64,000 bases of DNA from Actinoplanes xinjiangensis (GTDB lineage: Bacteria; Actinomycetota; Actinomycetes; Mycobacteriales; Micromonosporaceae): assembly GCF_003148685.1 (NCBI RefSeq), contig NZ_QGGR01000001.1, positions 682,001 to 746,000 on the forward strand, given 5' to 3'. The notes under the pieces are model-generated. The model did not search any database. It had not been told where the DNA came from and saw nothing but the letters and a program-made list of their open reading frames with translations. Position numbers and translations under genes: made by a program. Positions 5,536 through 44,280 of this stretch are shown here, piece by piece. Each line of letters opens with the position of its first letter. Position 1 is the first letter of the stretch.

Positions 5536-5624
5536 GGCGGGGTCGTCACCGCTGTCTTCGGCGGGGTCGTCAACGACGCTGACCCGGCGGGGTCGTCATG
5601 CTGCTGACCCCTGTGGGGTCGTCA
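5536..5624. repeat. Short tandem repeats GGCGGGGTCGTCA (x4)
   Basis: The 13-mer GGCGGGGTCGTCA begins at 5536, 5560 and 5586, and as TGTGGGGTCGTCA at 5612. Periods are 24, 26 and 26 bp. The fourth copy is the outer arm of the large hairpin at 5611-5667, so the array looks like partial copies of that hairpin's left arm. It lies between two convergent stop codons. Confidence 0.75.
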
Positions 5625-5667
5625 CCGCTGTCTCCGGGGCGTTGAGACAGCGGTGACGACCCCACAG
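5611..5667. repeat. Copy 1 of the dispersed 53-bp palindrome; 24-bp perfect hairpin between convergent genes
   Basis: Two perfect 24-nt inverted arms (5611-5634 and 5644-5667) enclose a 9-nt loop. The inner arm CACCGCTGTCTC/GAGACAGCGGTG is the core shared with elements at 19.3, 24.2, 33.9, 38.8 and 44.2 kb. The outer arm is GTGGGGTCGT here rather than GGCTGGT. It lies 124 bp after the PAP2 stop and 20 bp after the stop of the opposing DeoR gene, so it could end both transcripts. There is no T-tract. Confidence 0.85.
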
Positions 5668-5686
5668 GTCTGTTGCCCGACCGGGG

Positions 5687-6427
5687 TCAGGCGGGGTGGA
5701 CGGGGATGCCGGCGAGGGCCGGATGGGTGGGTGGGGCGTCGGTGACGACGGCGGTCACGGCGGTGCAGGGCAGGACCAGGAACGGTGAGGCGGCGCCGAT
5801 CTTCTCGGTGCTGGCCAGGACGTAGGTGTCGGCGGCGCGGGCGGCCAGAGCGCGTTTCATCGCCGCCTCGTCGGGGTCGCCGGTGGTCAGGCCGGCCTCG
5901 TGGTGCACACCGGTCACGCCGAGCAGGAACAGGTCGGCGGTGACGCCCTGCGCCGCCTCGGCCGCCGCCGCCCCGCACGTGACCGCCGAGTGCTTGAACA
6001 ACCGGCCGCCCAGCACGAACACGTCGACCGACGGATGCTCGACGAGGGCCGCGGCGACGGTCGGGCTGTGGGTGACGACGGTGGCCCGCAGGCCGGGGGG
6101 CAGCGCCGCGGTGACGGCCAGTGCCGTGGTGCCGCCGTCGAGCAGGACGGTCTGCCCGGGCCGGATCAGTGCGGCGGCGGCGGCCGCGACCCGTTCCTTG
6201 CTCGACGTGGCGACGGTGGCCCGGGTCGCGTAGTCGGCGAGGGCCGGCGAGACCGGCAGCGCTCCCCCGTAGACCCGCTGGCACAGCCCGGCCGCGGCCA
6301 TCTCGCGCAGGTCACGGCGAATGGTGTCCTCGGCGACGCCCAGCTCGGCCGCGATGTCCTTGGCGACCACCTTGCCCTCGGCGGCGAGCCGGGCCAGGAG
6401 AAGATCACGACGTTCCGCGGCCAGCAT
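5687..6427 (-). CDS. DeoR family transcriptional regulator
   Basis: A 246-residue protein with an N-terminal winged HTH (residues 1-57; recognition region ELGVAEDTIRRDLREM) and a C-terminal DeoRC sugar-phosphate sensing domain (DGGTT near 118, VLGG near 157). Such proteins usually repress sugar or nucleoside catabolic genes and are released by a phosphorylated sugar. The only adjacent divergent gene is a Nudix hydrolase, so that gene is the likely target together with the regulator itself. GAGGAG precedes the ATG. The inducer cannot be named from sequence. Confidence 0.88.
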   Translation of the reverse strand: MLAAERRDLLLARLAAEGKVVAKDIAAELGVAEDTIRRDLREMAAAGLCQRVYGGALPVSPALADYATRATVATSSKERVAAAAAALIRPGQTVLLDGGTTALAVTAALPPGLRATVVTHSPTVAAALVEHPSVDVFVLGGRLFKHSAVTCGAAAAEAAQGVTADLFLLGVTGVHHEAGLTTGDPDEAAMKRALAARAADTYVLASTEKIGAASPFLVLPCTAVTAVVTDAPPTHPALAGIPVHPA

Positions 6428-6486
6428 TCCGTGTTTCTCCTCATTGTTGTCGACTGTTGCGTGTTTCCGAGTGTAAGTTCCCGATC
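6428..6486. promoter_or_regulatory. DeoR/Nudix divergent promoter with direct repeats
   Basis: The 59-bp gap holds the direct repeat GTGTTTC at 6431-6437 and again at 6461-6467, exactly 30 bp apart, flanking an AT-rich stretch (ATTGTTGTCGACTGTTG). Phased direct repeats like this are plausible DeoR operators controlling both genes. Confidence 0.5.
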
Positions 6487-7158
6487 ATGAGCGAATCAAG
6501 GCCGGGCATCGACGTTCCGGACGCACGCGGGCGGACCGGGCTGGACCGGGTGGGCCGCGACCTGAGCGGGAACCCGTCGGTGATCGTGCGGGACGTGGAG
6601 CTGATCGCGGCCGCCTGGCACGTGCTGCGGCGGACCACGTACGACTACCGCCGACGGGACGGCACCTGGACGCGGGAGCAGCGGGAGACGTACGACCGCG
6701 GCGACGGCGCGACCGTCCTGCTCTACGACCCGCACCGTCGGACCGTGCTGCTGACCAGGCAGTTCCGCTTCCCGGTGTATGTGAACGGCCACCCCGACGG
6801 CATGTTCCTGGAGACGGCGGCGGGCCTGCTCGACGGCGACGACCCGGCCGCGGCGATCCGGCGGGAGGCGGCCGAGGAGCTGGGCGTCACGATCGGCGAA
6901 CTGACGCCGGTGTTCCGCGTGTGGACCAGCCCGGGCTCGGTGACCGAGCGGCTGCACTGTTTCGCCGCGCCGTACTCGGTGGAGTCCCGCACCGGGGTGG
7001 GCGGGGGCCTGGCCGACGACGGGGAGGACATCGAGGCGGTGGAGCTGTCGTTCGACGAGGCGCTGGCGATGGTCGACTCCGGGGAGATCGCCGACGCCAA
7101 GACGATCATGCTGCTCCAGTGGGCGGCGCTGAAGGGGACACTTGACACGGATCGATGA
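6487..7158 (+). CDS. Nudix hydrolase (NudK / nucleoside-diphosphate-sugar pyrophosphatase type)
   Basis: The start ATG at 6487 gives 223 residues; an upstream extension in the same frame runs through the DeoR gene and was rejected. The Nudix helix is at about residues 113-134, with REAAEELGV supplying the Mg-binding glutamates. The preceding TRQFRFPVYVNGHPDGMFLE stretch and the overall layout match the NudK/AdpP-like family, which cleaves GDP-mannose, ADP-ribose or similar sugar nucleotides to a sugar phosphate and NMP. The divergent DeoR regulator senses sugar phosphates in related systems, so the two may form a unit. Exact substrate unknown. Confidence 0.85.
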   Translation: MSESRPGIDVPDARGRTGLDRVGRDLSGNPSVIVRDVELIAAAWHVLRRTTYDYRRRDGTWTREQRETYDRGDGATVLLYDPHRRTVLLTRQFRFPVYVNGHPDGMFLETAAGLLDGDDPAAAIRREAAEELGVTIGELTPVFRVWTSPGSVTERLHCFAAPYSVESRTGVGGGLADDGEDIEAVELSFDEALAMVDSGEIADAKTIMLLQWAALKGTLDTDR

Positions 7159-7189
7159 CGACCGTTGAGTGTTACCGGGAGGTAACGTG

Positions 7190-8545
7190 ATGATCGTCCG
7201 CCGTGCCCTGCTCGCTGCCACGCTGACCGCCGGGATCCTGACCGGGGCCCCGGCCGCCGCCGCCCCGCCGTCGTGCGCGGCGCCGGTGCCGAGTGACACC
7301 AGACCCGGCTATCTGGTCGCCGACCCGGACTGTGAGCTGGACGGAACCCCGTTCACCGCGCTGCCCGGCGCGACCGTGCACACCGGAATCCAGGCGGGTG
7401 CGGCATACCGCATCGAGGTGCCGCAGCGGTGGAACGGGCGGCTCGTCGTCTATGCGCACGGCTACCGCGGGACGGGTTCGACGGTCTACGTCAGCAATCC
7501 CGAGCTGCGGCGGCACTATGTCGACCGCGGCTACGCGTGGGCGGCGTCCAGCTACGCCACCAACGGCTACGACGTCGGTCAGGGGGTGCGTGACACGTAC
7601 GCGCTGATTGGTGTGTTCCGGCAGGTCACCGGCAGGACGGCCGGGAAGGTCTACATCTCCGGCGCGTCGATGGGCGGGCACGTCACCGCGGTCGCGATCG
7701 AGGAGTACCCGCGCGCGTTCGCCGGGGCGATGCCGTACTGCGGGGTCCTCGGCGACGCGGAACTGTTCGACTACTTCCTGGACGCGAACGTGACGGCGGC
7801 CGCCCTGGCCGGCGTCGGCATCGAGTTCCCGTTGCAGCCGGACGCCGCCTATCCGGCCCGGTTCGCCGGCCAGGTCGCCCGGATCACCACCGCGCTCACC
7901 GGCACGCCGGCCGGGCGGACCTGGTCCGACGTGCTGGAACGCCGCAGCGGTGGGGAGCGTCCCGGCTTCCCGGCGGCGTTCGCCTACTGGAACGCGGCGA
8001 GCCAGGGTGGGCTGCCGTTCCTGTTCAGCGTCTACCCCGGGCTCAGCGGCGGAACGGCCGGCATCGCGCCCGGCAACCTGACCGACAACCGGCACACCGT
8101 CTACCGGTCGACCGACCGCCGGTGGCCGACAGCGGCGGAACTGCGGCTCAACGCGTCGGTCCCGCGGGTCGCGCGGACGGCGTACCCGGATCGCGGTCTT
8201 GCCGGTGTCCCCCGCATCGACGGCCGCCCCGGCGTCCCGGTCCTCTCGCTGCACGGCGTCGGCGACCTGTTCGTGCCGTTCTCGATGGAGCAGGAGTACG
8301 CCCGTCGCGCGTGGGCCAACGGGCGCTCCCGCCTGTTCGTCTCGCGGGCCATCCGGACCGTGGCGCACTGCGGCTTCACCGGGGCCGAACTCAGCCGGGC
8401 CTTCGACGACCTGATCGCCTGGACCGACCGGGGCCGGCGCCCGGCGGGCGACGCGATCCTCGACCGGCGCACGGTGGCTTCCGCGACATTCGGTTGCCGT
8501 TTCACGGTCGGGGTACGGCCGGAGTACGCCCCCGACGGTTGCTGA
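7190..8545 (+). CDS. Secreted alpha/beta hydrolase
   Basis: The ATG at 7190 follows GGGAGGTAAC; a GTG three bases earlier is also possible. The first 25 residues ([18 protein letters not shown]...AAAA) are a Sec signal peptide. The mature part has an alpha/beta hydrolase fold: VVYAHGYRG near 87 (oxyanion region), GASMGG at 158-163 with S160 as probable nucleophile, GVGDLFVPF near 360 for the acid, and VAHCGF near 395 for the histidine. Length is 451 aa. Related proteins are annotated as esterases, lipases or peptidases; the substrate is not apparent. Its 3' end overlaps the convergent tctA by 44 bp. Confidence 0.8.
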
Positions 8546-10028
8546 CACCGCCCGGCAGCACCCGCCGGATCAGGGGCCACGCCAGGATGATCAGGACGAT
8601 CGTATAGACCACGTACGACACCGCGCCGCCGAGCAGGCCGGACAGGTCGCCGCCGGAGAGCTGCAACGCCATCCGGCCCTGCCGTTCGGCCAGCGGCCCG
8701 AGGATGACACCGACGATCAGTGGCAGCACCGGCAGTCCGAAGCGGCGCATCGCGAACCCGAGCAGGCCCAGGGTGAGCAGCAGGAACAGGTCGAACGGCT
8801 GGGCGTTGACGGCGTAGGCGCCCATCGAGGCGAAGAAGACGATCCCGGCGTACAGATAGGGCCTCGGGATCCGCAGCAGGCGGGCCCACGCCGGCGCCAG
8901 CGGCAGGTTGAGCAGCAGGAGCATCAGGTTGCCGACGAACAGGCTGGCGATCAGCGTCCACACCAGGGTCGCCTCGCGTTCCAGCAGCAGCGGGCCGGGC
9001 TGGATGCCGTAGGTCTGGAAGGCCGCCAGCATGACCGCGGCCGTGGCGTTGGTGGGCAGCCCGAGCGCGAGCATCGGCACGAGCGTCCCGGCCGCGGAGG
9101 CGTTGTTGGCGGCCTCCGGCCCGGCCACGCCCTCGATGGCGCCCTTCCCGAACTCCTCCGGATGCCGGCTGAGGCGTTTCTCCAGGGCGTAGGAGAGGAA
9201 GGTGGGCAGCTCGGCGCCACCGGCCGGCATCACCCCGAACGGGAAACCGAGGCCGGTGCCGCGCAGCCACGGCTTCCAGGAGCGGCGCCAGTCGTCGCGG
9301 CCCAGCCACGGCTGTCCGACCGGGATCACCTCGACCGGGCGGCGGCGCAGGTGGGCGGCCACCCACAGGGTCTCCCCGACGGCGAAGATGCCGACCGCCA
9401 CCACGATCACGTCGATGCCGTCGGCGAGCTGCGGGATGTCCATGGTGAGGCGGGGCTGGCCGGTCACCCGGTCGATGCCGACCAGGCCGATGACCAGACC
9501 GAGCAGCAGGGCGGAGAAGCCGCGGACCCGGGACGAGCCGAGGACGGCGCTGACCGCGATGAACCCGAGGATCATGATGGCCAGGTAGTCGGGGGCGCCC
9601 AGGTCGATCGCGAACGCCACCATGACCGGGGTGATCAGCACCAGCAGCAGGGTGCCGATCAGGCCGGCGACGAACGAGCCGATCGCGGCGGTGGCCAGCG
9701 CCTGTGCGGCCCGGCCGGAGCGGGCCATCTTGTTGCCCTCGATCGCGGTGACCACCGAGGACGACTCGCCGGGGGTGTTGAGCAGGATCGAGGTGGTGGA
9801 GCCGCCGTACATGCCGCCGTAGAAGATGCCGGCGAACATGATGAAGGCCTGCGTCGGCTCCAGCCCGTAGGTGAGCGGCAGCAGCAGGGCGACGGTCATC
9901 GCCGAGCCGATGCCGGGCAGCACGCCGACCGCGGTGCCGACCGTGACGCCGATCAACGCGACCAGCAGGTTCATCGGCGTGAGGACGTGCCCGAAGCCGT
10001 CCAGCAGCTGGGTCAGGTCGTTGATCAC
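8502..10028 (-). CDS. tctA: Tripartite tricarboxylate transporter permease, large subunit TctA
   Basis: A 508-residue inner membrane protein with about eleven hydrophobic segments and the TctA signatures [18 protein letters not shown] (near 40), [20 protein letters not shown] (near 70) and [17 protein letters not shown] (near 310). It forms the channel of a secondary transporter driven by an ion gradient and fed by a binding protein. It is the last gene of tctC-tctB-tctA: its ATG overlaps the TctB stop by 4 bp (ATGA). The 3' end overlaps the opposite-strand hydrolase gene (8502-8545). Substrate is probably citrate or another tri/dicarboxylate, by family. Confidence 0.93.
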
Positions 10029-10588
10029 AGGATTCCTTGCAGTATTCCGGCGGGCAGGTTCACACCGAGGCCGATGGCGAACCCGTAGAAGGTGATCAGC
10101 GCCATCGCGATCGCGACCGCGGCGGTGAGCAGGTGCCGGCGGGCGCCGAGAGCGAACGCGGTGGACCAGAACAGCAGGGATCCGCTGATCACCCAGCCGA
10201 GCGGCTCGATCAGGACCGCGTTGACGGCGAACGCGAGCGCCACCAGCAGGACGGTGCGCCAGTCGATCGACGAGGTGGGGTCGACGTCCTCGCCGCCCTC
10301 CGGTTCGCCGTGGCCGCCGCGGGCCACGTCGATCGCGTAGACGACGGCGGCGATCAGCAGCAGCGCACCGAGCAGGATCGGCACCGGGCGCGGGCCGATC
10401 GGGTCGTTGCTACTGGTGGCGCTGCCGGTGCCGAGGGCGTCGAGGAGGACGAGGACGCCGGCCAGGGCCAGGAACGCGCACATGCCGTACTGCGCGCGGT
10501 CCCGGCCCCGGCCGCCCGCCGGAGGAGGGGCCTTCTCCGGCGAGCCGGTCGGCGGCTGGATCGCCGCATCGCTCGCGGGCTCGGTCAT
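10025..10588 (-). CDS. tctB: Tripartite tricarboxylate transporter small membrane subunit TctB
   Basis: A 187-residue protein with four hydrophobic helices (about 36-51, 69-86, 111-130 and 132-180) after a proline-rich cytoplasmic N-terminus. Size, topology and position between tctC and tctA identify it as TctB, the small membrane subunit. A longer reading frame extends upstream through tctC and is not coding. The ATG at 10588 overlaps the tctC stop by 4 bp, and its own stop overlaps the tctA start by 4 bp. Translation of the three genes is therefore likely coupled. Confidence 0.9.
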
Positions 10589-11583
10589 GCCAGGCCGAGC
10601 CCGGTCAGGATGTCGGCGACCGCCTTGTCCTGGTCGGTGAGGAACGTGGCGAACTGGTCGCCGGTGACGAATGCGTCGGTCCAGCCGTGTTTGGCCAGCT
10701 CGGCACGCCAGGCGTCGGTGCCGTGCATCTTCGTCAGGGCGTCGATCCAGGTCTGCCGGTCGGCGTCGGTGATACCGGGCGGGGCGACGATGCCGCGCCA
10801 GTTGGTGAAGATCAGGTCGACGCCGGACTCCTTGAGCGTGGGCACGTCGGCGACCGCGTCGATGCGCTTGTCGCTGGTGACCGCCAGGACGCGTACCTGA
10901 CCGGCCTCGACCTGGTCGAGGAACTCGCCGACGCCGCTCGCGCCGAATGCGATCTTGCCGCCGAGGACCGCCGGGAGCAGCTCGCCGCCGCCGTCGTAGG
11001 AGACGTAGCTGACCTGCCGGGCGTCGATGCCGACGGCCTGGGCCAGCTGCATGGGCAGCAGGTGGTCGGGACCGCCGGGCGACGAGCCGCCGCCGACGGC
11101 GAGCTTCTTCGGGTCCGCCTTCCAGGCCGTCACCAGGTCGGTGATGGTGCGGTACGGCGAGTCCTTGGCCACCACGATCGCGCCGGGCTCCTCGATCACC
11201 TTGGCCAGCGGGGTGGTCTCGGTGAGTTTCGCCGGGGACTTCTGCGTGTACGAGGCCCCGACGACGCCGAGGCCCATCTGCATGGCGAGCTTGCCGTTGC
11301 CCTTCTCGTTGACGGTCCGTTGCAGGCCGACCGTGCCGCCGGCGCCGGACAGGTTGAAGACCTCGACACCGGAGGCGATCTTGTCGTCCTCCATGATCTT
11401 GGCGATGCTGCGGGCGGTGGTGTCGTAGCCGCCGCCCGGGCTGTTCGGCACCATCAGCCGCAGCCCGGCGACCGGACCGCCGTCCGCGCCGCCACCTTTG
11501 TCCGCGGTCGCACCGCAACCGCCCGCCGCCAGCACCGTCACGGCGGCGGCCATGCCCAGGAAAGCCCTGGCCAGAGATTTCAT
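10585..11583 (-). CDS. tctC: Tripartite tricarboxylate transporter substrate-binding lipoprotein TctC
   Basis: The ATG at 11583 gives 332 residues with a lipoprotein signal: MKSLARAFLGM... ending in a lipobox around AAGGC, so the Cys near residue 23 should be lipidated. The mature protein has the Bug/TctC fold: PNSPGGGYDTTAR, SGAGG near 80, GGSSPGGPDH near 165 and the NWRG...PPG motif near 265. It would capture carboxylates outside the cell and deliver them to TctAB. It is the first gene of the operon and is divergent from a citrate-type sensor kinase. A weak AAAGAG ribosome site precedes it. Confidence 0.92.
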   Translation of the reverse strand: MKSLARAFLGMAAAVTVLAAGGCGATADKGGGADGGPVAGLRLMVPNSPGGGYDTTARSIAKIMEDDKIASGVEVFNLSGAGGTVGLQRTVNEKGNGKLAMQMGLGVVGASYTQKSPAKLTETTPLAKVIEEPGAIVVAKDSPYRTITDLVTAWKADPKKLAVGGGSSPGGPDHLLPMQLAQAVGIDARQVSYVSYDGGGELLPAVLGGKIAFGASGVGEFLDQVEAGQVRVLAVTSDKRIDAVADVPTLKESGVDLIFTNWRGIVAPPGITDADRQTWIDALTKMHGTDAWRAELAKHGWTDAFVTGDQFATFLTDQDKAVADILTGLGLA

Positions 11584-11652
11584 CGCGGTTTCTCTTTCGT
11601 TTCGTCGATGTCCAGCGCGATGATGGTGGCCCTTCGGCGGCTGCCGGGTCTG

Positions 11653-11668
11653 CGTTGTGACTACAACG
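11653..11668. promoter_or_regulatory. Palindrome in tctC / sensor-kinase divergent region
   Basis: CGTTGT-GACT-ACAACG is a 6-bp inverted repeat with a 4-bp centre, located 16-31 bp before the kinase start and about 70 bp upstream of tctC. It is the best candidate in this 100-bp gap for the binding site of the downstream response regulator. Binding is an inference. Confidence 0.4.
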
Positions 11669-11683
11669 GAGGTTGAGTTAATT

Positions 11684-13977: not shown

Positions 13978-13992
13978 CGAGGCCTCTTGCGG

Positions 13993-14907: not shown

Positions 14908-14916
14908 CCCATTACG

Positions 14917-14954
14917 TTAGCTGAACTTAAGTGCATCGCTAATAAAGCATCGCT
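14917..14954. promoter_or_regulatory. LysR-type operator region upstream of putA
   Basis: TTAGC (14917-14921) and GCTAA (14938-14942) form an inverted repeat around a perfect ACTTAAGT palindrome (14924-14931). A direct repeat GCATCGCT occurs at 14933-14940 and 14947-14954, 14 bp apart. Upstream recognition site plus activation site is the usual LysR layout, placed here 56-94 bp before the putA start. Confidence 0.55.
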
Positions 14955-19347: not shown

Positions 19348-19443
19348 GGCTGGTGCCCACCGCTGTCTACCGCGCCGCGAGACAGCGGTGGGAACCAGCC
19401 CGGTCGGCCGCGCCGCGCCGCGAGACAGCGGTGGGGAGCAGCC
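19348..19443. repeat. Copy 2 of the 53-bp palindrome plus a half copy
   Basis: A full element at 19348-19400 has 21-nt arms (GGCTGGTGCCCACCGCTGTCT and its complement with one mismatch) and an 11-nt loop. Forty-three bp further on, at 19422-19443, the right arm alone is repeated (GAGACAGCGGTGGGGAGCAGCC with one change), with the surrounding CCGCGCCGCG and CGGTCGGCC also duplicated. The full element lies 88 bp and the half copy 45 bp beyond the stop of the mycothiol-isomerase-like gene. Confidence 0.85.
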
Positions 19444-19487: not shown

Positions 19488-20111
19488 TCAGACGACGGTG
19501 AAGCCGGTGGGGAGGGCGGCCCGGCCGGTCAGGGCGCGGATCGTGGGGATGCCCTGGCCGACGGCGACGGCGATGCGGGCGGCGAGGGCGGCCGTCGACG
19601 CCAGCGTGTCATGGTCGAAACCGATCGGCAGGCCGGCCGCCACGGCGGCGTCCGAGGCGTGCACGACCAGTTCGAACGTCCGGGTGGGCAGCCAGTCCTC
19701 GACGCGCATACCGCCGGCCGGGGTGGCGACCAGGTCGTCGTCGCCGACGCCGGCGAGGGCGGCCGTCGCCTTGCCGATGTAGCCGCTGACGGCCTCGGCC
19801 GGGTCGTCGCCGAGGGTGGCGCCGGTGGCGCGGGCATCGTCGGTCGACGCCGTGCGGACGGCGGCGATCAGGTCGGCGGGCGCGACCCGGGCCAGGGCGA
19901 AATACGCCTCGGGCGCCGGGACCAGCAGCGTCGGCGCACGGTCGGCGAGCACCGTGGGAACCTGGCGCAACGCCGAACTGACGGTGTGGCCGAGCAGGTC
20001 ACGCAGTGTCCACTCGCCGAGGCCGGGGCCGTCGAGGGCGGCCGGCGGGATCCGGGAGACCAGGTCGGCGAAGGCGATGGCGGCCGATCGGTAGTTGCGG
20101 CGGTAGTCCAT
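19488..20111 (-). CDS. Maleylpyruvate isomerase / mycothiol-dependent DinB-like protein
   Basis: A 207-residue protein of the MDMPI_N/DinB-like family. The N-terminus (RRNYRSAAIAFADLVSRIPPAALDGPGLGEWTLRDLLGHTVSSALR) carries the WTLRDLLGH motif, whose His is part of a metal site, and the later TRTFELVVHASD stretch supplies the second. Founding members isomerise maleylpyruvate with mycothiol as cofactor; most relatives are uncharacterised mycothiol-dependent enzymes. No gentisate-pathway gene is nearby, so the specific reaction is open. Presence of this family fits an actinobacterium. Confidence 0.8.
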   Translation of the reverse strand: MDYRRNYRSAAIAFADLVSRIPPAALDGPGLGEWTLRDLLGHTVSSALRQVPTVLADRAPTLLVPAPEAYFALARVAPADLIAAVRTASTDDARATGATLGDDPAEAVSGYIGKATAALAGVGDDDLVATPAGGMRVEDWLPTRTFELVVHASDAAVAAGLPIGFDHDTLASTAALAARIAVAVGQGIPTIRALTGRAALPTGFTVV

Positions 20112-23375: not shown

Positions 23376-24185
23376 ATGCCCGTCGACGAAGAAGCCGGTA
23401 GCGGCGCAGCGTTCTCCCAGTCCCTGGAGCGCGGGCTGATGATCCTGTCGTCGTTCGACGAGACCCGGCCGGTGCTGGGCATCGCCGACATCTCCCGCGC
23501 GGTGACGCTGAACAAGAGCACCACCCATCGGTACGTGGCCACCCTGACCCGCCTCGGCTACCTGCAACAGGACCCGGAGACGAAGAAGTACTCGCTCGGG
23601 CCGAAGGTGGTGGACCTGGGGTTCGCGGCGCTCGACTCCCTGGAGATCAACCGGGTGGCGGCGCCCTGCCTGCAGAACCTGGCCGACGAGACGGGCTACA
23701 CGGTGAGCATGGCGATCCTCGACGGGCCTGACATCGTCTACGTGGAGCGGCGCCGCAGCGGACGGCCGGTCGGCGGGTTCGCGATCGGGCTGAACCTGCA
23801 CGTGGGGTCGCGGCTGCCGGCGTACTGCACGTCGATGGGGAAGGTGCTGCTCGCCCATCAGGAGCCGGCCGTGCTGCGCCGGCTGCTGGACCGGACCGAC
23901 TTCGCCCGGCGCGGGCCGAAGACGCTGACCAACCGGGAACAGCTGATGGCTGCGCTCGCGAAGATCCGGCAGACCGGGGTGTCGGTGAACGACGAGGAGC
24001 TGGCGTCCGGGCTGCGGTCGGTGGCGGCACCGGTGCGGGACCGGACCGGCCGGGTGGTCGCCGCCGTCAACATCGCGGTGCACCTGACCGTCTGGTCGAC
24101 CAGCGCGGACGCCGTGGTCGCCCGCCTGGAACGCCCGCTGCGCCAGTGCACCGCCGAGATCAGCACCCGCCTCGGCCACCGCTGA
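23376..24185 (+). CDS. IclR family transcriptional regulator
   Basis: A 269-residue protein: winged HTH at about 15-70 (ADISRAVTLNKSTTHRYVATLTRLGYL) and an IclR effector domain (about 85-265; DIVYVERRRSGRP, YCTSMGKVLLA, SVNDEELASGLRSVAAPV). Its pattern is close to the PcaR/PobR-type subgroup that controls aromatic acid catabolism. It lies between two aldehyde dehydrogenase genes, one divergent and one downstream in the same direction but separated by a 319-bp repeat-filled gap. Effector unknown. Confidence 0.9.
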   Translation: MPVDEEAGSGAAFSQSLERGLMILSSFDETRPVLGIADISRAVTLNKSTTHRYVATLTRLGYLQQDPETKKYSLGPKVVDLGFAALDSLEINRVAAPCLQNLADETGYTVSMAILDGPDIVYVERRRSGRPVGGFAIGLNLHVGSRLPAYCTSMGKVLLAHQEPAVLRRLLDRTDFARRGPKTLTNREQLMAALAKIRQTGVSVNDEELASGLRSVAAPVRDRTGRVVAAVNIAVHLTVWSTSADAVVARLERPLRQCTAEISTRLGHR

Positions 24186-24193: not shown

Positions 24194-24372
24194 GGCTGGC
24201 TCCCACCGCTGCCTCAGCCACGCTGAGACAGCGGTGACGACCAGCCCACACCACCCGGCTGGCTCCCACCGTCGTCTCAGCCACGCTGAGACAGCGGTGA
24301 CGACCAGCCCACACCACCCGGCTGGCTCCCACCGTCGTCTCAGCGGCGCTGAGACAGCGGTGAGGGCCAGCC
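24194..24372. repeat. Copies 3-5 of the 53-bp palindrome in tandem (63-bp period)
   Basis: Three elements at 24194-24246, 24257-24309 and 24320-24372 are joined by two identical 10-bp linkers (CACACCACCC), giving an exact 63-bp period. Each has a GGCTGGC..CAGC left arm and a GCTGAGACAGCGG..CCAGCC right arm. The loop is CAC in the first two and GGC in the third. Copies 2 and 3 carry the same change (CACCGTCGTCTC for CACCGCTGCCTC) in the left arm. The array starts 9 bp after the IclR stop and fills much of the gap to the next gene; nothing else is evident in 24373-24504. Confidence 0.9.
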
Positions 24373-33932: not shown

Positions 33933-33985
33933 GGCTGGCTCTCACCGCTGTCTCAGCGGCGCTGAGACAGCGGTGGGGACCAGCC
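33933..33985. repeat. Copy 6 of the 53-bp palindrome
   Basis: The cleanest single copy: a 25-nt left arm (GGCTGGCTCTCACCGCTGTC continuing TCAGC), a GGC loop, and a right arm GCTGAGACAGCGGTGG-GGACCAGCC. It lies 84 bp beyond the stop of the minus-strand acetoacetate-decarboxylase-like gene. Its right end runs directly into a 19-bp tandem array. On the other side, GTCAGGTCC..CCGGCCGCC-type short repeats fill about 33868-33930. Confidence 0.9.
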
Positions 33986-34073
33986 GGGCCTCTCGGAACC
34001 AGCCGGGCCTCTCAGGACCAGCCGGGCCTCATGGGACCGGCCGGGCCTCCCGGGACCGGCCGGGCTTTTCAGG
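33979..34073. repeat. Five 19-bp tandem repeats reaching the stop codon of the decarboxylase-like gene
   Basis: Units of the form ACCAGCCGGGCCTCTCGGA begin at 33979, 33998, 34017, 34036 and 34055 with an exact 19-bp period and increasing divergence. The first unit shares its ACCAGCC with the right end of the 53-bp palindrome, and the last contains the stop codon (34069-34071) of the adjacent gene. The array therefore bridges gene end and palindrome. Confidence 0.88.
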
Positions 34074-34731
34074 TTGCTGAACGGGACTTCGCGCGGTCCT
34101 CGGCGGAACGGCCGAAGGTCAGCCAGAAGTCGGTGACGGCCAGGCTCAGCACCGGGCGCCGCCCGCTCAGGTAGCCCAGCGGGCCGTCCGGCTCGGGACG
34201 CCACGCCGCCGCGGCCGTACGCAGCCCCGCCCGGCCCCGGACCGGGGTGCGCCGCACGTGCTCACCGAGCTGCTGCGCCACCGTGAACCCGAGCGGATAC
34301 CGGCCCGGCAGCCGCCGCTTGAGCCGGACCAGCGCCGATCCGATCGCCGCGCCGCCGGGGGCGGTGAGGGTGGCGTCGACGAGCGGCTCGGTCTCCGCGT
34401 CCAGGGTGAAGTCGGCGAGTTCCTTGGGGATGCCCCAGAGCCTGCGGCCGCCCTCGCGGGAGGCGACGCTGTCCACCCAGATGTCGGTGATGCTGACCCG
34501 TGGACGGCCGCGCTCGTGCACCAGGACGGCGCTGAGCAGTTCCCTGTAGTGCAGGACGCCGCCCGGTTCGTACGACACCCAGGCGGCACCGACCGCGACG
34601 CGGCCGCCGACGGTGACCGGGCGCACCGCGGCGCCGAGCACCGGAGGCAGGGCCGGCATGTCCCGGCGGGGGATCAGGAACACCGACAGATACATCTGTC
34701 CGCGCAGGTGCCAGGGCTCGGGCGGGTACAT
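34069..34731 (-). CDS. Acetoacetate decarboxylase family protein
   Basis: A 220-residue protein of the ADC beta-barrel fold: MYLSVFLIPRRDMPALP near the start, YRELLSAVLV near 62, WVDSVASREGGRRLWGIPKELADF near 85 (a Lys in the position of the Schiff-base region) and a C-terminal LAVTDFWLTFG. True acetoacetate decarboxylases have a paired-lysine active site; here a single Lys in GIPKEL is seen, so the activity may differ. Many actinobacterial members act in secondary metabolism or are unknown. The stop lies inside a 19-bp tandem repeat. Confidence 0.75.
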   Translation of the reverse strand: MYPPEPWHLRGQMYLSVFLIPRRDMPALPPVLGAAVRPVTVGGRVAVGAAWVSYEPGGVLHYRELLSAVLVHERGRPRVSITDIWVDSVASREGGRRLWGIPKELADFTLDAETEPLVDATLTAPGGAAIGSALVRLKRRLPGRYPLGFTVAQQLGEHVRRTPVRGRAGLRTAAAAWRPEPDGPLGYLSGRRPVLSLAVTDFWLTFGRSAEDRAKSRSAT

Positions 34732-34779
34732 GACTCCACCCTGGCACCCCGCGGGCGTACGTTCAACGCTCTCGATGCC

Positions 34780-36348: not shown

Positions 36349-36498
36349 CAGTGTCCCCTCTTCGTGCCGGCTCGCCGTCGACCGCATGATCGGCAACGCC
36401 GGTCCGCGCTTGAGGGAGCCGCCCGACCCCCAGTCTCCAGCGCGGGGTGACCTTGACGGGCCGACTCGTCCAGATTGACGGGAGGGACGGGTGGGACG

Positions 36499-37125: not shown

Positions 37126-37126
37126 G

Positions 37127-38125: not shown

Positions 38126-38209
38126 GGCCGGCTCCTTTGCCTCGGTCCCCTCAGCATGGTCGCGCTGAGTGATTCGGCCAAGCCTTTGGCGTGACTACCA
38201 TCGGGACCC
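38126..38209. promoter_or_regulatory. dhaK / dhaM divergent promoter region
   Basis: The 84-bp gap contains CTCAGC-N8-GCTGAG (38150-38169) and GCCAA-GCCT-TTGGC (38177-38190). Either could be an operator shared by the two halves of the dha system. No regulator gene is adjacent, so control may come from a distant factor. Confidence 0.4.
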
Positions 38210-38596
38210 ATGGCGTACGTGGGAATCGTGCTCGTGTCACACAGCTCAACGCTCGCCGCCGGCGTGCACGAACTGCTCGCGCAGGTCGCGGGTCCGGAGG
38301 TCCGGGTGGAACCGGCCGGTGGCACCGACGACGGTTCGCTCGGCACCAGCGCCGACAAGATCGAGGCGGCGGTCCGGGCCGCCGACACCGGCGCCGGGGT
38401 GCTGGTCCTGGCCGATCTGGGCAGCGCCGTGCTGACCGCCCGCGCGGTGCTGGCCGATCTGCCGGCCGGCCGGCTGCTGGTGGACGCGCCGTTCGTCGAG
38501 GGGGCGGTGGCCGCCGCGGTCGTCGCGTCCACCGGCGCCGACCTGGCGGCCGTCGCCGAGGCGGCCGGGGAGGCCCGCGATGTCCCCAAGTTCTGA
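38210..38596 (+). CDS. dhaM: PTS-dependent dihydroxyacetone kinase phosphotransferase subunit DhaM
   Basis: A 128-residue EIIA-Man-like domain with the phospho-accepting H11 in GIVLVSHSSTLAAG and the GGTDDGSLGTS segment near 37. It takes phosphate from HPr and recharges ADP on DhaL. This is the minimal DhaM, without the HPr and EI-like domains fused in E. coli; the HPr function is supplied by the next gene, which it overlaps by 17 bp. Confidence 0.94.
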   Translation: MAYVGIVLVSHSSTLAAGVHELLAQVAGPEVRVEPAGGTDDGSLGTSADKIEAAVRAADTGAGVLVLADLGSAVLTARAVLADLPAGRLLVDAPFVEGAVAAAVVASTGADLAAVAEAAGEARDVPKF

Positions 38597-38840
38597 GGTC
38601 GAGGTGGTGCTGCCCGCGGCGTTGCACGCCCGCCCGGCCGCCGAGGCGGTCCGGGCCGCGTCGATCTTCACCGCGGATGTCGAGGTGTGTCTCGGCGAGC
38701 GTTCCGTGAGCGCCCGCAGCGCCCTGCGCCTGATGTCGCTGGGCGCGAACGCGGGCGCCACGGTCACCGTGCGGGCCACCGGCGACGACGCCGATCTCGC
38801 CGCGCGCGCGGTGGCGGAGGTGCTGCGCGCCGCGCAGTGA
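38580..38840 (+). CDS. HPr family phosphocarrier protein
   Basis: An 86-residue HPr with active-site H16 in the LHARPA motif and the usual open-faced sandwich length. The start overlaps the end of dhaM by 17 bp, which suggests coupled translation. It probably relays phosphate from PTS enzyme I to DhaM. Whether it also serves sugar PTS permeases cannot be told; its position suggests a dedicated role. A hairpin with seven T follows. Confidence 0.92.
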   Translation: MSPSSEVEVVLPAALHARPAAEAVRAASIFTADVEVCLGERSVSARSALRLMSLGANAGATVTVRATGDDADLAARAVAEVLRAAQ

Positions 38841-38844
38841 GATC

Positions 38845-38909
38845 CCGGCTGGTTCTCACCGCTGTCTCACGGGGGTCGAGACAGCGGTGAGGACCAGCCG
38901 GATTTTTTT
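38845..38909 (+). terminator. Copy 7 of the 53-bp palindrome acting as intrinsic terminator
   Basis: A 24-bp stem (arms 38845-38868 and 38878-38901, one G-U type mismatch) with a 9-nt loop is followed by A and seven T (38903-38909). It begins 5 bp after the HPr stop. The arms are the dispersed element (GGCTGGTTCTCACCGC...). This is the only copy with a T-tract, and it makes a textbook Rho-independent terminator. Confidence 0.9.
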
Positions 38910-38922
38910 GTCGATCTCGAGC

Positions 38923-38939
38923 CTCCGAAAGTTTCGGAG
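38923..38939. promoter_or_regulatory. Operator palindrome upstream of xylanase
   Basis: CTCCGAAA-G-TTTCGGAG is a perfect 17-bp palindrome, 115 bp before the xylanase start. CGAAA/TTTCG inverted repeats with this spacing are known upstream of xylanolytic genes in streptomycetes, where LacI/ROK-type regulators act. Binding here is inferred. A second short palindrome, TTCCGGAA, occurs near 38979. Confidence 0.65.
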
Positions 38940-38975
38940 CATAACTGCCTGCTCTTCGTCGACTCAGCCGGTTGA

Positions 38976-40418
<1,443 letters not shown>

Positions 40419-40422
40419 GACG

Positions 40423-40458
40423 CCGGTTCCGGGGCGCCCGTCCGCGCCCCGGAACCGG
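40423..40458. terminator. Bidirectional hairpin between xylanase and thiolase
   Basis: CCGGTTCCGGGGCGC and GCGCCCCGGAACCGG form a perfect 15-bp stem with a 6-nt loop. It fills the 41-bp gap between the convergent stop codons (5 bp after the xylanase stop, 1 bp before the thiolase stop). Confidence 0.8.
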
Positions 40459-40459
40459 T

Positions 40460-41737
40460 TCAGCGTTCCAGGATCGCCACGACGCCCTGGCCGCCCGCGG
40501 CGCAGATGGAGATCAGGCCACGGCCGGAGCCCTTCTGTGCCAGCAGCTTGGCCAGGGTGGCGACGATCCGGCCGCCGGTCGCCGCGAACGGGTGACCGGC
40601 CGCCAGGGACGAGCCGTTGACGTTCAGCTTCGCCCGGTCGATCGCACCGAGCGGGGCGTCCAGGCCGAGCTTCTCCTTGCAGAACGACGGGGACTCCCAG
40701 GCCGCCAGCGTGGACAGCACCTGCGACGCGAACGCCTCGTGGATCTCGTAGAAGTCGAAGTCCTGGAGGGTCAGGCCGTTGCGGGCCAGCATCCGGGGCA
40801 CCGCGTAGGCGGGTGCCATCAGCAGCCCCTCCTCGCCGTGCACGTAGTCGACCGCCGCGGTCTCCGAATCGGCGAGATACGCGAGCACCGGCAGCGACCG
40901 GGCCGCCGCCCACTCCTCCGACGCCAGCAGCACCGCGGAGGCACCGTCGGTGAGCGGCGTCGAGTTGCCCGCCGTCATCGTCGGGTTCTCCCGGCCGTAC
41001 ACCGGCTTGAGCCGGGAAAGCTTCTCCAGACTGCTGTCGGGGCGCAGATTCTGGTCACGGGTGAGCCCCAGATAGGGCGTCAGAAGATCATCGAAGAAAC
41101 CGCTGTCGTACGCCGCCGCGAGCCGCTGATGCGACGTCAGGGCCAGCTCGTCCTGGGCGGCCCGGTCGACGTTCCAGGTCAGCGCGGTGATCGCCGCGTG
41201 CTCCCCCATCGACAGACCGGTCCGCGGCTCGGCGTTGCGCGGCAGCTCCGGCCTGACCGCGTGCTGCGGGCGCAGTTTCGCGACGGCCTTGAGCCGGGCA
41301 CCGAGCGTCCGGGCCCGGTTGAGTTCCAGCAGGGCCCGGCGCATGTCCTCGTTGAGCTGCAACGGGGCGTCCGATGTGGTGTCCACGCCACCGGCCACGC
41401 CGACGTCGATCTGCCCGAGCGCGATCTTGTTGGCGACCAGGATCGCCGCCTCCAGGCCCGTGCCGCACGCCTGCTGGATGTCGTAGGCCGGGGTCCGTGG
41501 GTCGAGCCGGGAACCGAGCACCACCTCGCGGGTCAGATTGAAGTCACGCGAGTGCTTGAGGACGGCGCCCGCGACCACCTCACCGAGCCGCTCCCCGGCC
41601 AGCCCGAACCGCGCGACCAGGCCGTCCAGCGCCGCGGTCAGCATGTCCTGGTTCGACGCCTCGGCGTAACGGCTGTCGGACCGGGCGAACGGAATGCGGT
41701 TCCCGCCCAGCACGGCCACACGGCGCACGTTCGTCAC
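40460..41737 (-). CDS. Acetyl-CoA C-acyltransferase (thiolase, FadA2/FadI-like)
   Basis: GTG 41737 follows GGAGAG six bases upstream; 425 residues. The thiolase signatures are present: nucleophile C91 in QQACGTGLEAA, EIHEAFA near 315, NVNGSSLAAGHPFAATGGR near 370 and SICAAGGQG with the second cysteine near 413. It cleaves 3-ketoacyl-CoA to acetyl-CoA in beta-oxidation or works in reverse. The gene is divergent from a FabG4-like reductase and MaoC hydratase, the same order as mycobacterial fadA2-fabG4-htdX. Confidence 0.94.
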   Translation of the reverse strand: MTNVRRVAVLGGNRIPFARSDSRYAEASNQDMLTAALDGLVARFGLAGERLGEVVAGAVLKHSRDFNLTREVVLGSRLDPRTPAYDIQQACGTGLEAAILVANKIALGQIDVGVAGGVDTTSDAPLQLNEDMRRALLELNRARTLGARLKAVAKLRPQHAVRPELPRNAEPRTGLSMGEHAAITALTWNVDRAAQDELALTSHQRLAAAYDSGFFDDLLTPYLGLTRDQNLRPDSSLEKLSRLKPVYGRENPTMTAGNSTPLTDGASAVLLASEEWAAARSLPVLAYLADSETAAVDYVHGEEGLLMAPAYAVPRMLARNGLTLQDFDFYEIHEAFASQVLSTLAAWESPSFCKEKLGLDAPLGAIDRAKLNVNGSSLAAGHPFAATGGRIVATLAKLLAQKGSGRGLISICAAGGQGVVAILER

Positions 41738-41774
41738 GACTACTCTCCATATCGACAGGTGCACGTGTTCACAG

Positions 41775-41792
41775 GGTTACTCACCGGTAGGC
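41775..41792. promoter_or_regulatory. Operator candidate in thiolase / reductase divergent promoter
   Basis: GGTTACTCACCGGTAGGC lies 8 bp before the reductase ATG and 38 bp from the thiolase start. The reverse complement of the element before the acyl-CoA dehydrogenase gene (44455-44473) reads GGTTAACTCGCCGGTAACC, nearly the same. A shared fatty-acid regulator, probably TetR-type, is inferred. Confidence 0.5.
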
Positions 41793-41799
41793 TACTCGC

Positions 41800-43140
41800 A
41801 TGGCTGACAGGTACGCGAACTTCGCCAACTCCGGTCTCGGCCGGACCATGGTCAAGCGCCTCGGGCTTCCTGATCCGCCCCGGCTGCGCCGCCACACGGC
41901 CGGCGATCCGCTGGTCACCGGGCCGGTCCTGCTCGGCGCGGCCCCCGGCGGCCGGCTCGGCGAGCCGACCCGCAAACTGCTGGAGACCGCAGGCGCCGAG
42001 GTCACCGACAAGACCGACGAAGGGGTACGGGTCAGCGCGCTCGTCTTCGACGCAACAGGCATCGTCGACTCCCCACAGCTTCGTGAGCTCTACGACTTCT
42101 TCCACCCGTACGCGCGTGCTCTGCAATCGTCGGGCCGGGTGATCGTGCTCGGGACACCTCCGGAGGCCACCGCATCGCCGAAGGAGGCGATCGCGCAGCG
42201 GAGCCTGGAAGGGCTGACCCGCAGCATCGGCAAGGAGTTCGGCCGCGGCACCACCGCCCAGCTGGTGTATGTGGCGCCCGGCGGCGAAGCGGGTGCCGAG
42301 TCGACGCTGCGGTTCCTGCTCAGCGGCCGGTCGGCGTACGTCTCCGGTCAGGTGATCCGGATCGGTGCCGCGCCCGCACCCGCGCCCGCCGACTGGGAAC
42401 GCCCCCTCGACGGCAAGCTCGCCCTGGTCACCGGTGCGGCCCGGGGCATCGGCGCGGCCATCGCCCGGATCCTGGCCCGCGACGGCGCCGAGGTCATCGC
42501 CCTCGACGTGCCGGCCGCCGGCGACGCGCTCGCCGGAGTCGCCAACGAGACCCGCGGCCGGGCCCTGCAGATCGACCTGACCGCCCCGGACGCGCCGGCC
42601 CGGCTCGCCGGTTACCTGGCCGCCGGACCGCACGCCGGGGTCGACATCCTCGTGCACAACGCCGGCATCACCCGCGACAAGACGATCGCCCGGATGTCCG
42701 CCGACCGGTGGGACTCGGTGATCGGGGTCAACCTGACCGCTCCCGAACGCGTCAACGACCTGCTGCTGGAACGCGGTCTGATCCCGTCCGGCGGGCGGAT
42801 CGTCGGGGTCGCGTCGATCGCCGGCATCGCCGGGAACCGCGGCCAGACCAACTACGCCACCAGCAAGGCCGGCGTGATCGGGCAGGTGCAGGCGTACGCT
42901 CCGGTGCTCGCCGGGCGGGGCATCACCATCAACGCGGTGGCGCCCGGCTTCATCGAGACGGCCATGACCGCGAAGATGCCGCTCGGGCTACGCGAGGCCG
43001 GCCGGCGGCTCAACAGCATGTCGCAGGGCGGTCTGCCGGCCGACGTCGCCGAGACGGTCGCCTGGTTCGCGTCCCCCGGCTCGGCCGCCGTCACCGGCAA
43101 CGTGGTGCGGGTCTGCGGTCAGAGCCTGCTGGGGGCCTGA
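41800..43140 (+). CDS. 3-ketoacyl-(ACP/CoA) reductase, FabG4-type
   Basis: A 446-residue high-molecular-weight FabG. Residues 1-200 form a degenerate flavodoxin-like Rossmann domain without a nucleotide motif. Residues ~205-446 form the active SDR: TGAARGIGAAIARI cofactor motif near 213, HNAG near 284, and the catalytic triad S339, Y352 and K356 (ASIAG, NYATSKAG). Length and two-domain layout match mycobacterial FabG4, which uses NADH and acts on CoA or ACP thioesters. The MaoC gene follows after a single base, so the two are co-translated. Confidence 0.93.
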   Translation: MADRYANFANSGLGRTMVKRLGLPDPPRLRRHTAGDPLVTGPVLLGAAPGGRLGEPTRKLLETAGAEVTDKTDEGVRVSALVFDATGIVDSPQLRELYDFFHPYARALQSSGRVIVLGTPPEATASPKEAIAQRSLEGLTRSIGKEFGRGTTAQLVYVAPGGEAGAESTLRFLLSGRSAYVSGQVIRIGAAPAPAPADWERPLDGKLALVTGAARGIGAAIARILARDGAEVIALDVPAAGDALAGVANETRGRALQIDLTAPDAPARLAGYLAAGPHAGVDILVHNAGITRDKTIARMSADRWDSVIGVNLTAPERVNDLLLERGLIPSGGRIVGVASIAGIAGNRGQTNYATSKAGVIGQVQAYAPVLAGRGITINAVAPGFIETAMTAKMPLGLREAGRRLNSMSQGGLPADVAETVAWFASPGSAAVTGNVVRVCGQSLLGA

Positions 43141-43141
43141 C

Positions 43142-44152
43142 GTGGTCGCGGTCGTCGAGCTCAGTGCCGGGCCCGGCACCACCGCGGCGTACGCCCGCGC
43201 CGCCCTCGGCCTGATCCCCGGATTCACCCGGTCCGGCGGTGCCCTTCCCGACGTGGAGGTCCGCCGGCGGGACGTCACCGTCGACCGTTCCCACCTGGCC
43301 GCCTACGACCGGGTCTGCGGGTTCCGCCTCACCGACACGCTGCCGCCGACCTATCCGCACGTGCTCGCGTTCCCGCTGGCTATGCGCCTGATGACGGCCC
43401 CGGATTTTCCGCTGCCGCTGATCGGCCTCGTGCACATCGCCAACCGGATCACCGTCCACCGGCCGATCCCGTCCGGTGCCGCCCTGGACCTGTCGGTCCG
43501 GGCCACCGCGCTGGGTGACCACCCGCGGGGCCGCCGCTTCGACATCCTGGCGACCGCGGCCCTGGACGGCACCGAGGTGTGGCGCGGCCTCTCCACCTAC
43601 CTACGCCTCGCCCCGCCCCAGCCGGCCCCTGCCCCTGACACGACCCCGGATACGGCCCAGGCCCCGGAGACGACGGGCGAGGACTCCCCGAACGGGTCGC
43701 GCTCGCTCCCGTCGGCCGCGGCCGGTCCAGGCACGGCCGGTCCAGGCGCGGCCGGTCCAGGCGCGGCCGGTCCAGGCGCGGCCGGTCCAGGCGCGGCCGG
43801 TCCAGGCGCGGCCGCTTCGAGCGCGGGCAGCGAGTGGCGGGTACCGGCACGGGTGGGCACCGACTACGCCGCCGTCTCCGGGGACCGGAACCCGATCCAC
43901 ACGTCCCGGCTGGGCGCGAGGCTCTTCGGCTTCCCCCGGCCGATCGCCCACGGCATGTGGACCAAGGCCCACGCGCTGGCCGCACTGGAAGGCCGCCTCC
44001 CGGACGCCTACACGGTCGACGTCACGTTCAGGAAGCCACTGCTCCTGCCGGCCCGGGCCACGTTCACCACGGTGTCCACCCCGGACGGATGGTCCTTCGC
44101 CCTCGCCTCCAGCCATCCCCACCTCACCGGCATCGTCACCGGCCCAACCTGA
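43142..44152 (+). CDS. MaoC family (R)-enoyl hydratase, HtdX-like, with repeat-expanded linker
   Basis: It starts at GTG 43142, one base after the reductase stop; 336 residues. Two hot-dog halves: a non-catalytic N-terminal half (about 1-150) and a C-terminal half (about 230-336) with the hydratase-2 motif YAAVSGDRNPIH, where D248 and H253 are catalytic. The halves are joined by a low-complexity linker (about 155-228) that includes six GAAGP-like pentads encoded by a 15-bp tandem repeat. It would hydrate trans-2-enoyl thioesters to (R)-3-hydroxyacyl forms, the substrate of the FabG4-like partner. Mycobacterial HtdX is shorter, mainly because of the linker. Confidence 0.9.
   Translation: MVAVVELSAGPGTTAAYARAALGLIPGFTRSGGALPDVEVRRRDVTVDRSHLAAYDRVCGFRLTDTLPPTYPHVLAFPLAMRLMTAPDFPLPLIGLVHIANRITVHRPIPSGAALDLSVRATALGDHPRGRRFDILATAALDGTEVWRGLSTYLRLAPPQPAPAPDTTPDTAQAPETTGEDSPNGSRSLPSAAAGPGTAGPGAAGPGAAGPGAAGPGAAGPGAAASSAGSEWRVPARVGTDYAAVSGDRNPIHTSRLGARLFGFPRPIAHGMWTKAHALAALEGRLPDAYTVDVTFRKPLLLPARATFTTVSTPDGWSFALASSHPHLTGIVTGPT
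43721..43810 (+). repeat. Six in-frame 15-bp tandem repeats in the MaoC linker
   Basis: GCCGGTCCAGGCGCG occurs six times in direct tandem (43721, 43736, 43751, 43766, 43781 and 43796), identical except for one base in the first unit. It codes for AGPGA pentads between the two hot-dog domains. Near-perfect identity implies recent expansion and likely length variation between strains. Confidence 0.95.
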
Positions 44153-44164
44153 CCCCGAAAACCC

Positions 44165-44280
44165 AGCTGGTCGTCACCGCTGCCTCAGCGCAGCTGAGAC
44201 AACGGTGGGAACCAGCCCGAAAAACCCAGCTGGCCGTCACCGGTGGCTCGGCGGAGCTGAGGCAGCGGTGGGGACCAGCC
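44165..44280. repeat. Copies 8 and 9 of the 53-bp palindrome (63-bp period)
   Basis: Two elements at 44165-44217 and 44228-44280 are spaced by exactly 63 bp, with similar A-rich linkers (CGAAAA(A)CCC). Both start AGCTGG rather than GGCTGG. The first retains most pairing; the second has several changes (CACCGGTGGCTCGGC). The pair begins 13 bp after the MaoC stop. The rest of the gap, 44281-44453, holds no gene that I can support. Confidence 0.88.

What the first reader, a model, noticed from the sequence alone, without database searches (positions are those of the whole stretch)
5611..44280. Dispersed 53-bp intergenic palindrome family, nine copies at six loci
Elements at 5611-5667, 19348-19400, 24194-24246, 24257-24309, 24320-24372, 33933-33985, 38845-38901, 44165-44217 and 44228-44280 share arms GGCTGGT/C..CACCGCTGTCTC and GAGACAGCGGTG..ACCAGCC; the core length is 53 bp in every copy. 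All six loci lie just 3' of a stop codon (5 to about 124 bp) and none is inside a gene. Such uniform, dense, gene-end-associated palindromes look like a genome-wide REP-like or terminator-type family. I know of no named family with this consensus.
Basis: seen in the sequence. Interest (0 to 1): 0.85.

Follow-up and report, generated by a model that had tools for sequence, protein, structure and literature searches.

The report
REP-like hairpin family oriented by replication
At least 172 copies of a 53-base hairpin sequence are scattered through this bacterium's genome, mostly beside the ends of genes in the part examined; related species carry their own versions with matching changes on both arms, and the element likely spreads as a single-stranded hairpin during DNA replication while probably also serving as a two-way stop signal for transcription.

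Summary
Confirmed: all nine copies lie where stated, with a 53-bp core (GGCTGG-YYSY-CACCGCTGTCTC-N9-GAGACAGCGGTG-RSRR-CCAGCC). The genome (genus Actinoplanes, inferred) holds 172 copies with exact inner boxes; the reversed control has 0. In 1.99 Mb read closely there are 148 copies at 66 loci: 42 convergent, 18 tandem, 4 divergent, 2 inside called ORFs.

New here: (1) Both arms change together between species (14 of 22 pairs with double changes, 0/500 shuffles); isolated copies covary too. (2) Convergent gaps with a copy and 40-250 bp outside it mostly lack an ordinary hairpin (1/20 against 56/91). (3) In the 63-bp-period arrays, mismatches are mainly G·T on the fork-parallel strand (lagging-strand template) and A·C on the other. 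This flips between replichores in two complete genomes and does not follow transcription; ordinary hairpins do follow it. (4) The family belongs mainly to one clade. It lacks the GTAG/CGTC tags of known REPs, and two copy-rich relatives have no RAYT-type transposase match.

Best reading: an untagged, RAYT-less REP-like hairpin element, propagated as lagging-strand ssDNA by an unknown factor (inferred), with isolated copies probably acting as bidirectional terminators (inferred). No mobility, binding or RNA data exist here.

The parts
5611..5667 (.). Isolated copy between convergent genes; inner boxes exact, outer arms replaced but complementary (CTGTGGGG/CCCCACAG)
   Evidence: relative G048 has a homologous palindrome with different, mostly pairing arms at the same site
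5537..5558 (+). Degenerate left-arm remnant near the 5611 copy
19348..19400 (.). Copy between two minus-strand genes, 87 bp after the stop of 19488-20111
19422..19443 (+). Lone right arm (rest of a partly deleted second unit)
24194..24246 (.). Array unit 1 of 3, 8 bp after the stop of an IclR-type gene (23376-24185, +)
24257..24309 (.). Array unit 2 of 3 (63-bp period)
24320..24372 (.). Array unit 3 of 3 (63-bp period)
33933..33985 (.). Isolated copy between two minus-strand genes, 83 bp after the stop of 34069-34731
   Evidence: G048 has a homologous 53-bp palindrome with the same 9-nt loop and other arm sequence
38845..38901 (.). Isolated copy between plus-strand genes, followed by a run of T (the only such window copy)
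44165..44217 (.). Array unit 1 of 2, 12 bp after the stop of 43142-44152 (+)
44228..44280 (.). Array unit 2 of 2 (63-bp period)

Best explanation
These are copies of a clade-specific REP-like hairpin element that is predicted to be recognised by an unidentified protein and copied as a single-stranded hairpin on the lagging-strand template, and whose isolated copies likely serve as two-way transcription terminators. Shown: fixed 53-bp architecture, gene-end placement, arm covariation between species and among isolated copies, near absence of ordinary hairpins from short convergent gaps that hold a copy, and strand asymmetry of array copies that flips with the replichore. Inferred: (a) a trans-acting recogniser, because a 6-bp and a 12-bp box stay fixed within a genome while the stretch between them and the loop drift, and the 12-bp box differs from species to species; (b) propagation or array growth on the lagging-strand template, because that strand keeps a better-folding hairpin (G.T wobbles) while its complement has A.C mismatches; (c) retention at gene ends because a near-perfect 22-bp stem can replace a terminator in both directions.
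For: 172 exact copies, 0 control. Spacer 9 bp in 147 of 148 counted copies. 42 of 66 loci convergent, 4 divergent. Interspecies alignment of 28 copies from 19 genomes: 90.9% of cells paired, 14 of 22 pairs with double changes, 0/500 shuffles as high. Isolated copies: 13 of 30 with exactly complementary 4-nt variable stretches against 3.7 in shuffles; arrays 7 of 118 against 5.7. Array mismatches on the + strand A.C:G.T 278:90, in 32 of 34 untied arrays. Replichore flip, per locus A.C>G.T: G.T>A.C: G038 0:4 against 4:0 (p 0.029), G060 1:8 against 7:2 (p 0.015); pooled pairs p 2.5e-5 and 6.5e-8. Model-strand test p 3.5e-5 and 3.1e-5. Between two + genes the family gives 66:16, ordinary hairpins 15:25 (p 4e-6). 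Array units fold better on the fork-parallel-type strand in 82 of 118, worse in 23. Ordinary hairpin in 1 of 20 convergent gaps with copies against 56 of 91 without (40-250 bp outside copies). IS200/IS605 orientation follows replication in other bacteria (PMC5371812, passages).
Against: No transposase or binding protein was found; no lone arm scoring 35 or more of 40 lies away from a copy in 1.99 Mb, so no autonomous parent is seen. No clean target duplication or exact empty site at about 90% identity. Isolated copies show no strand bias (21:17), so the replication signature rests on arrays, whose units are related by duplication. Own contigs C1-C3 all lean the same way although their orientation to the fork is not known. 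Pooled pairs are not independent. Rows of the interspecies alignment passed a filter asking for 13 of 22 pairs, which favours pairing. In convergent gaps over 250 bp, array-bearing ones have an ordinary hairpin in 8 of 9, against 16 of 34 without the family. T-tracts are rare.
Confidence: 0.45

Rival explanations
1. A family of intrinsic bidirectional terminators acting only in RNA; the shared sequence reflects common descent and gene conversion, with no mobility enzyme.
For: Convergent placement, covariation, very stable stems (about -45 kcal/mol as RNA for isolated copies, both strands), replacement of ordinary hairpins. G048 and the own genome share two of ten compared sites with changed, still largely pairing arms.
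Against: Array wobbles follow replication, not transcription: 66:16 A.C:G.T between two + genes, where ordinary hairpins give 15:25. Pairing alone does not explain fixed boxes of 6 and 12 bp and a fixed loop length. At C1:681.5 kb the array stands beside an ordinary hairpin that both genomes keep. Few T-tracts.
Confidence: 0.25
2. Double-stranded sites for a dimeric DNA-binding protein (chromosome organisation, gyrase-like or nucleoid role); the palindrome reflects two-fold protein symmetry, not folding.
For: Symmetric fixed boxes, half-site spacing of 21 bp and array period of 63 bp, both multiples of 10.5 (helical reading is mine); no covariation within arrays.
Against: Arm covariation in the variable stretch of isolated copies and between species points to a folded strand. 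A duplex site should not care which strand carries the wobble.
Confidence: 0.12
3. The strand asymmetry is only mutational: hairpin- or strand-specific mutation on the lagging-strand template acts on decaying array copies, and nothing is mobilised.
For: The direction (C and A enriched on the fork-antiparallel strand) agrees with the weak intergenic skew, GC -0.024 and AT +0.040; isolated, well-paired copies show no bias.
Against: The intergenic skew is a few per cent while array mismatches run about 3:1. Ordinary hairpins in the same DNA follow transcription instead.
Confidence: 0.12
4. Ordinary REP/REPIN elements mobilised by a RAYT (Y1 tyrosine) transposase.
For: Layout resembles REPINs: conserved boxes, length-conserved spacer, compensatory changes, ordered tandem clusters (PMC3116915, passages); gene-end placement resembles other REPs (PMC3733652, passages).
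Against: No GTAG at 298 stem feet, GTGG at 3, CGTC at 11. No PF01797 match in copy-rich G028 and G066; the own genome's single match has no copy of the element within its 3.4-kb locus.
Confidence: 0.03

Closest known systems
REPINs / GTAG-tagged REPs with RAYT transposases
   Same: Dispersed extragenic hairpins, conserved boxes around a length-conserved variable stretch, compensatory changes, ordered tandem clusters, species-specific versions (PMC3116915, PMC6006769, passages)
   Different: No GTAG/GTGG tag at the stem foot, no RAYT-type gene detected in two copy-rich relatives, 9-nt loop and 22-bp stem, Actinoplanes host
CGTC-tagged REPs
   Same: Palindromes near gene ends, reported without a dedicated transposase (PMC3733652, passages)
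   Different: Those have 8-9 bp stems, 4-5 nt loops and an unpaired CGTC end; here CGTC is at 11 of 298 stem feet
IS200/IS605 single-strand transposons
   Same: Orientation follows replication through the lagging-strand template (PMC5371812, passages)
   Different: No gene inside the element; the own genome's IS200-like gene is not flanked by copies
Intrinsic (Rho-independent) terminators
   Same: Stable hairpins between convergent genes, rarely together with an ordinary hairpin in short gaps
   Different: Sequence-fixed boxes and loop length, arrays, few T-tracts, wobble strand set by replication in arrays

Membership tests
REP (broad sense: repetitive extragenic palindrome) | Short palindromic repeat in many extragenic copies | tested here: met
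   172 exact copies; 64 of 66 examined loci outside called ORFs
REPIN / GTAG REP | GTAG or GTGG tetranucleotide at the 5' foot of the stem | tested here: not met
   0 GTAG and 3 GTGG at 298 stem feet
REPIN / GTAG REP | Associated RAYT (Y1_Tnp) gene, flanked by copies | tested here: not met
   PF01797: none in G028 and G066; own single match without copies in its locus; a very divergent RAYT is not excluded
CGTC REP | Unpaired CGTC at one end, 8-9 bp stem, 4-5 nt loop | tested here: not met
   CGTC at 11 of 298 feet; 22-bp stem, 9-nt loop (definition)
MITE of a TIR-bounded insertion sequence | Autonomous element with the same terminal repeats | tested here: not met
   No lone arm scoring 35 or more of 40 away from a copy in 1.99 of 10.8 Mb; the rest of the genome was not read
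MITE of a TIR-bounded insertion sequence | Target-site duplication at exact borders | tested here: inconclusive
   Ten orthologous sites in G048 compared by eye; borders blurred at about 90% identity
Intrinsic terminator | Stable hairpin downstream of stop codons | tested here: met
Intrinsic terminator | T-tract after the stem | tested here: not met
   TTTT within 14 nt at 2 and 4 of 148 copies on the two strands
Intrinsic terminator | Transcript 3' ends at the element | not testable with these tools
   no RNA data available
IS200/IS605-like single-strand mobility | Orientation set by replication direction | tested here: met
   arrays in G038 and G060; isolated copies have no measurable orientation
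IS200/IS605-like single-strand mobility | HUH transposase acting on the element | not testable with these tools
   needs biochemistry; no candidate found

The most novel reading that the evidence does not exclude
A new kind of bacterial hairpin element: it is read and multiplied only as single-stranded DNA on the lagging-strand template, by a factor unrelated to RAYTs. It leaves a wobble-strand record of fork direction in its arrays and has displaced ordinary terminators at about a quarter of the convergent gaps examined.
Probability: 0.25. Interest if true: 0.85.

Novelty: new variant of a known kind. Interest (0 to 1): 0.62.

Why it matters
It adds an untagged REP-like family without a detectable RAYT, in Actinoplanes, where the searches made here found none described. 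The strand test (on which strand the wobble pairs sit, set against transcription and against replication) separates terminator-like hairpins from replication-linked ones and could be run on any palindrome family. If the reading holds, an enzyme or binding protein that handles lagging-strand hairpins awaits discovery in this clade.

Tried and rejected
RAYT partner: not supported. Autonomous insertion sequence with the same ends: none in the 1.99 Mb read. Known RNA family: no Rfam match at gathering threshold. Neutral strand skew as full cause: too small. My first view that arms do not covary came from mixed copies and did not hold for isolated copies once they were split from arrays. A partner gene between neighbouring loci: six stretches translated, only ordinary-looking genes by eye, no profile search of them. 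Genes beside copies in different genomes are mostly unrelated; the only shared flanks were between L128 and L130 and between L129 and L134. Literature: listings; passages of PMC6006769, PMC3116915, PMC3733652, PMC5371812 and PMC4681348.

Rows dropped before counting: of 166 matches, 17 with spacers other than 9 or 12 (13 of 22 bp, 2 of 32, 1 of 39, 1 of 7; most overlap a counted copy, but the 7-bp one at C2 about 234.9 kb looks real) and one 9-bp match at C2 about 660.9 kb inside a called gene with arm-like GC repeats. From the interspecies set G005 and G052 (spacer 8 or 10) were left out, and for A3 at most three copies per relative and four own copies were taken, ranked in part by pairing.

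Full report
Observation. The inner palindrome CACCGCTGTCTC-N-GAGACAGCGGTG occurs 172 times exactly in the genome and its reversed control never. With mismatches allowed these hold 148 counted copies, 47 of them exact, at 66 loci. Scaling by 172/47 suggests roughly 540 copies in all, an extrapolation.

Anatomy. The consensus is GGCTGG-YYSY-CACCGCTGTCTC-N9-GAGACAGCGGTG-RSRR-CCAGCC. The spacer is 9 bp in 147 of the 148 counted copies and 12 in one; a match with spacer 7 was dropped. 30 copies are isolated and 118 stand in 36 arrays of 2-6 units; 71 of 82 array steps are exactly 63 bp. The 6-bp and 12-bp boxes vary little, the YYSY stretch and the loop a lot.

Placement. With my own gene caller, 42 loci lie between convergent genes, 18 between tandem genes, 4 between divergent genes and 2 in called ORFs. 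For the 60 loci with a gene 3' end the median distance is 31.5 bp; 38 are within 50 bp. Copies sit in 41 of 153 convergent gaps of 60 bp or more against 22 of 758 other gaps. One of the two ORF loci is a four-unit array that reads in frame, so 'never inside a gene' does not hold genome-wide.

Covariation. Mixed copies first showed none. Split, isolated copies do: 13 of 30 have an exactly complementary YYSY stretch against 3.7 in shuffles; arrays have 7 of 118 against 5.7. Eleven isolated copies of G038 average 21.8 of 22 pairs, and positions 7 and 8 covary (p 0.003 and 0.011). Between species, 28 copies from 19 genomes give 14 of 22 pairs with double changes and no shuffle of 500 as high; these rows had passed a filter asking for 13 of 22 pairs, which favours pairing but does not by itself produce double changes. 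Examples: G038 CACGGGTGTCTC/GAGACACCCGTG, G037 CAGGGTTGTCTC/GAGACAACCCTG.

Range. A sequence model finds the family in 21 of 67 genomes of the genus. A structure model finds it in 27 of 67, and in 9 of 233 other genomes of the family, weakly (best E 1.4e-6, not inspected). By identity over a 3.2-kb segment, 25 of 27 genomes at 80% or more are positive against 2 of 40 below, so the family belongs mainly to one clade. Candidate caps and double counting of strands make match numbers in relatives unreliable as copy counts. The genus name Actinoplanes is inferred from the closest named records.

Orthologous sites. Of 26 loci on C1, 16 fell in the G048 stretch and ten were printed beside it. By my reading two hold a homologous palindrome with changed, largely pairing arms, one a possible remnant, and seven lack it. 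A further locus (window 44165) coincides in position with a weakly paired G048 palindrome. At C1:681.5 kb both genomes keep the same ordinary hairpin and only the own genome has the array beside it. In the named relative A. philippinensis the site of window 19348 holds a short GC palindrome instead (by eye).

Terminator test. In convergent gaps with 40-250 bp outside the copies, an ordinary hairpin is present in 56 of 91 gaps without the family and 1 of 20 with it (p 2e-6). My hairpin search masks about 30 bp on each side of a copy, which lowers the second figure somewhat. In gaps above 250 bp arrays go the other way, 8 of 9 against 16 of 34 without the family, singles 1 of 5. T-tracts are rare: 2 and 4 of 148 on the two strands.

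Strand test. Mismatched pairs were counted as A.C or G.T on the + strand. Own arrays give 278:90, A.C ahead in 32 of 34 untied arrays; isolated copies give 21:17. In 321 ordinary intergenic hairpins the wobble lies on the transcript strand: minus-minus gaps 47:15, plus-plus 15:25, convergent 33:24, divergent 11:10. The family gives 66:16 in plus-plus gaps, against transcription (p 4e-6; 8 loci), 38:17 in minus-minus gaps (p 0.53, not different) and 183:69 in convergent gaps (p 0.04). In two complete genomes, with dnaA located and the terminus taken as its antipode, the bias flips with the replichore: G038 7:19 against 33:8, G060 26:65 against 85:44; per locus p 0.029 and 0.015 (41 and 75 copies from the best-scoring loci). 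The strand preference of the sequence model agrees, p 3.5e-5 and 3.1e-5. Put in the own genome's frame, lagging-strand tandem gaps lean the same way, G038 3:2 and G060 24:12. So G.T pairs favour the fork-parallel strand, which is the lagging-strand template. Intergenic skew has the same direction but is only a few per cent. The fork orientation of own contigs C1-C3 is not known; that all three lean alike is unexplained.

Interpretation. Fixed boxes plus pairing in the variable stretch point to a recogniser of a folded strand; the array asymmetry points to replication rather than transcription. I commit to a REP-like element handled as lagging-strand ssDNA by an unknown factor, with isolated copies kept as two-way terminators. 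Recogniser, mobility and termination are all inferred. IS200/IS605 elements give the precedent for orientation set by replication (PMC5371812, passages). REPINs and CGTC REPs are the nearest repeat families (PMC3116915 and PMC3733652, passages), but their tags and the RAYT are missing here.

Noticed in passing
G000 C2:509904-513014 (-), array at about C2:511976-512217: Four units of the element read in frame inside a large regulator-like gene (63 bp = 21 codons), giving a repeated peptide; the gene type (SARP/AfsR-like) is my reading by eye.
   Followed up: partly
G000 C2, about 660818-660940: Tandem GC-rich repeats resembling the left arm inside a called gene; left out of the counts.
   Followed up: no
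G000 C3, about 207586-207680: Three left-half arms in tandem at 35-bp steps directly before a full copy, a different array type.
   Followed up: no
window 3655-5487 (+): PAP2-domain protein that also matches PATR (PF12951, E 2.7e-8), a repeat named for autotransporter passengers, unexpected in this host.
   Followed up: no
G000 C21:117952-118314, locus L141: IS200-type TnpA gene beside a TnpB-like gene (the latter by eye), without the palindrome.
   Followed up: partly
own genome, 321 ordinary intergenic hairpins: Ordinary gene-end hairpins carry their wobble pairs on the transcript strand, a simple sign of function in RNA.
   Followed up: yes
G048 C1 (reverse strand), site matching own C1:658056: A different strong hairpin (GATCTGGTGAGGTC ... 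GACCTCACCAGATC) stands where the own genome has a family copy.
   Followed up: no
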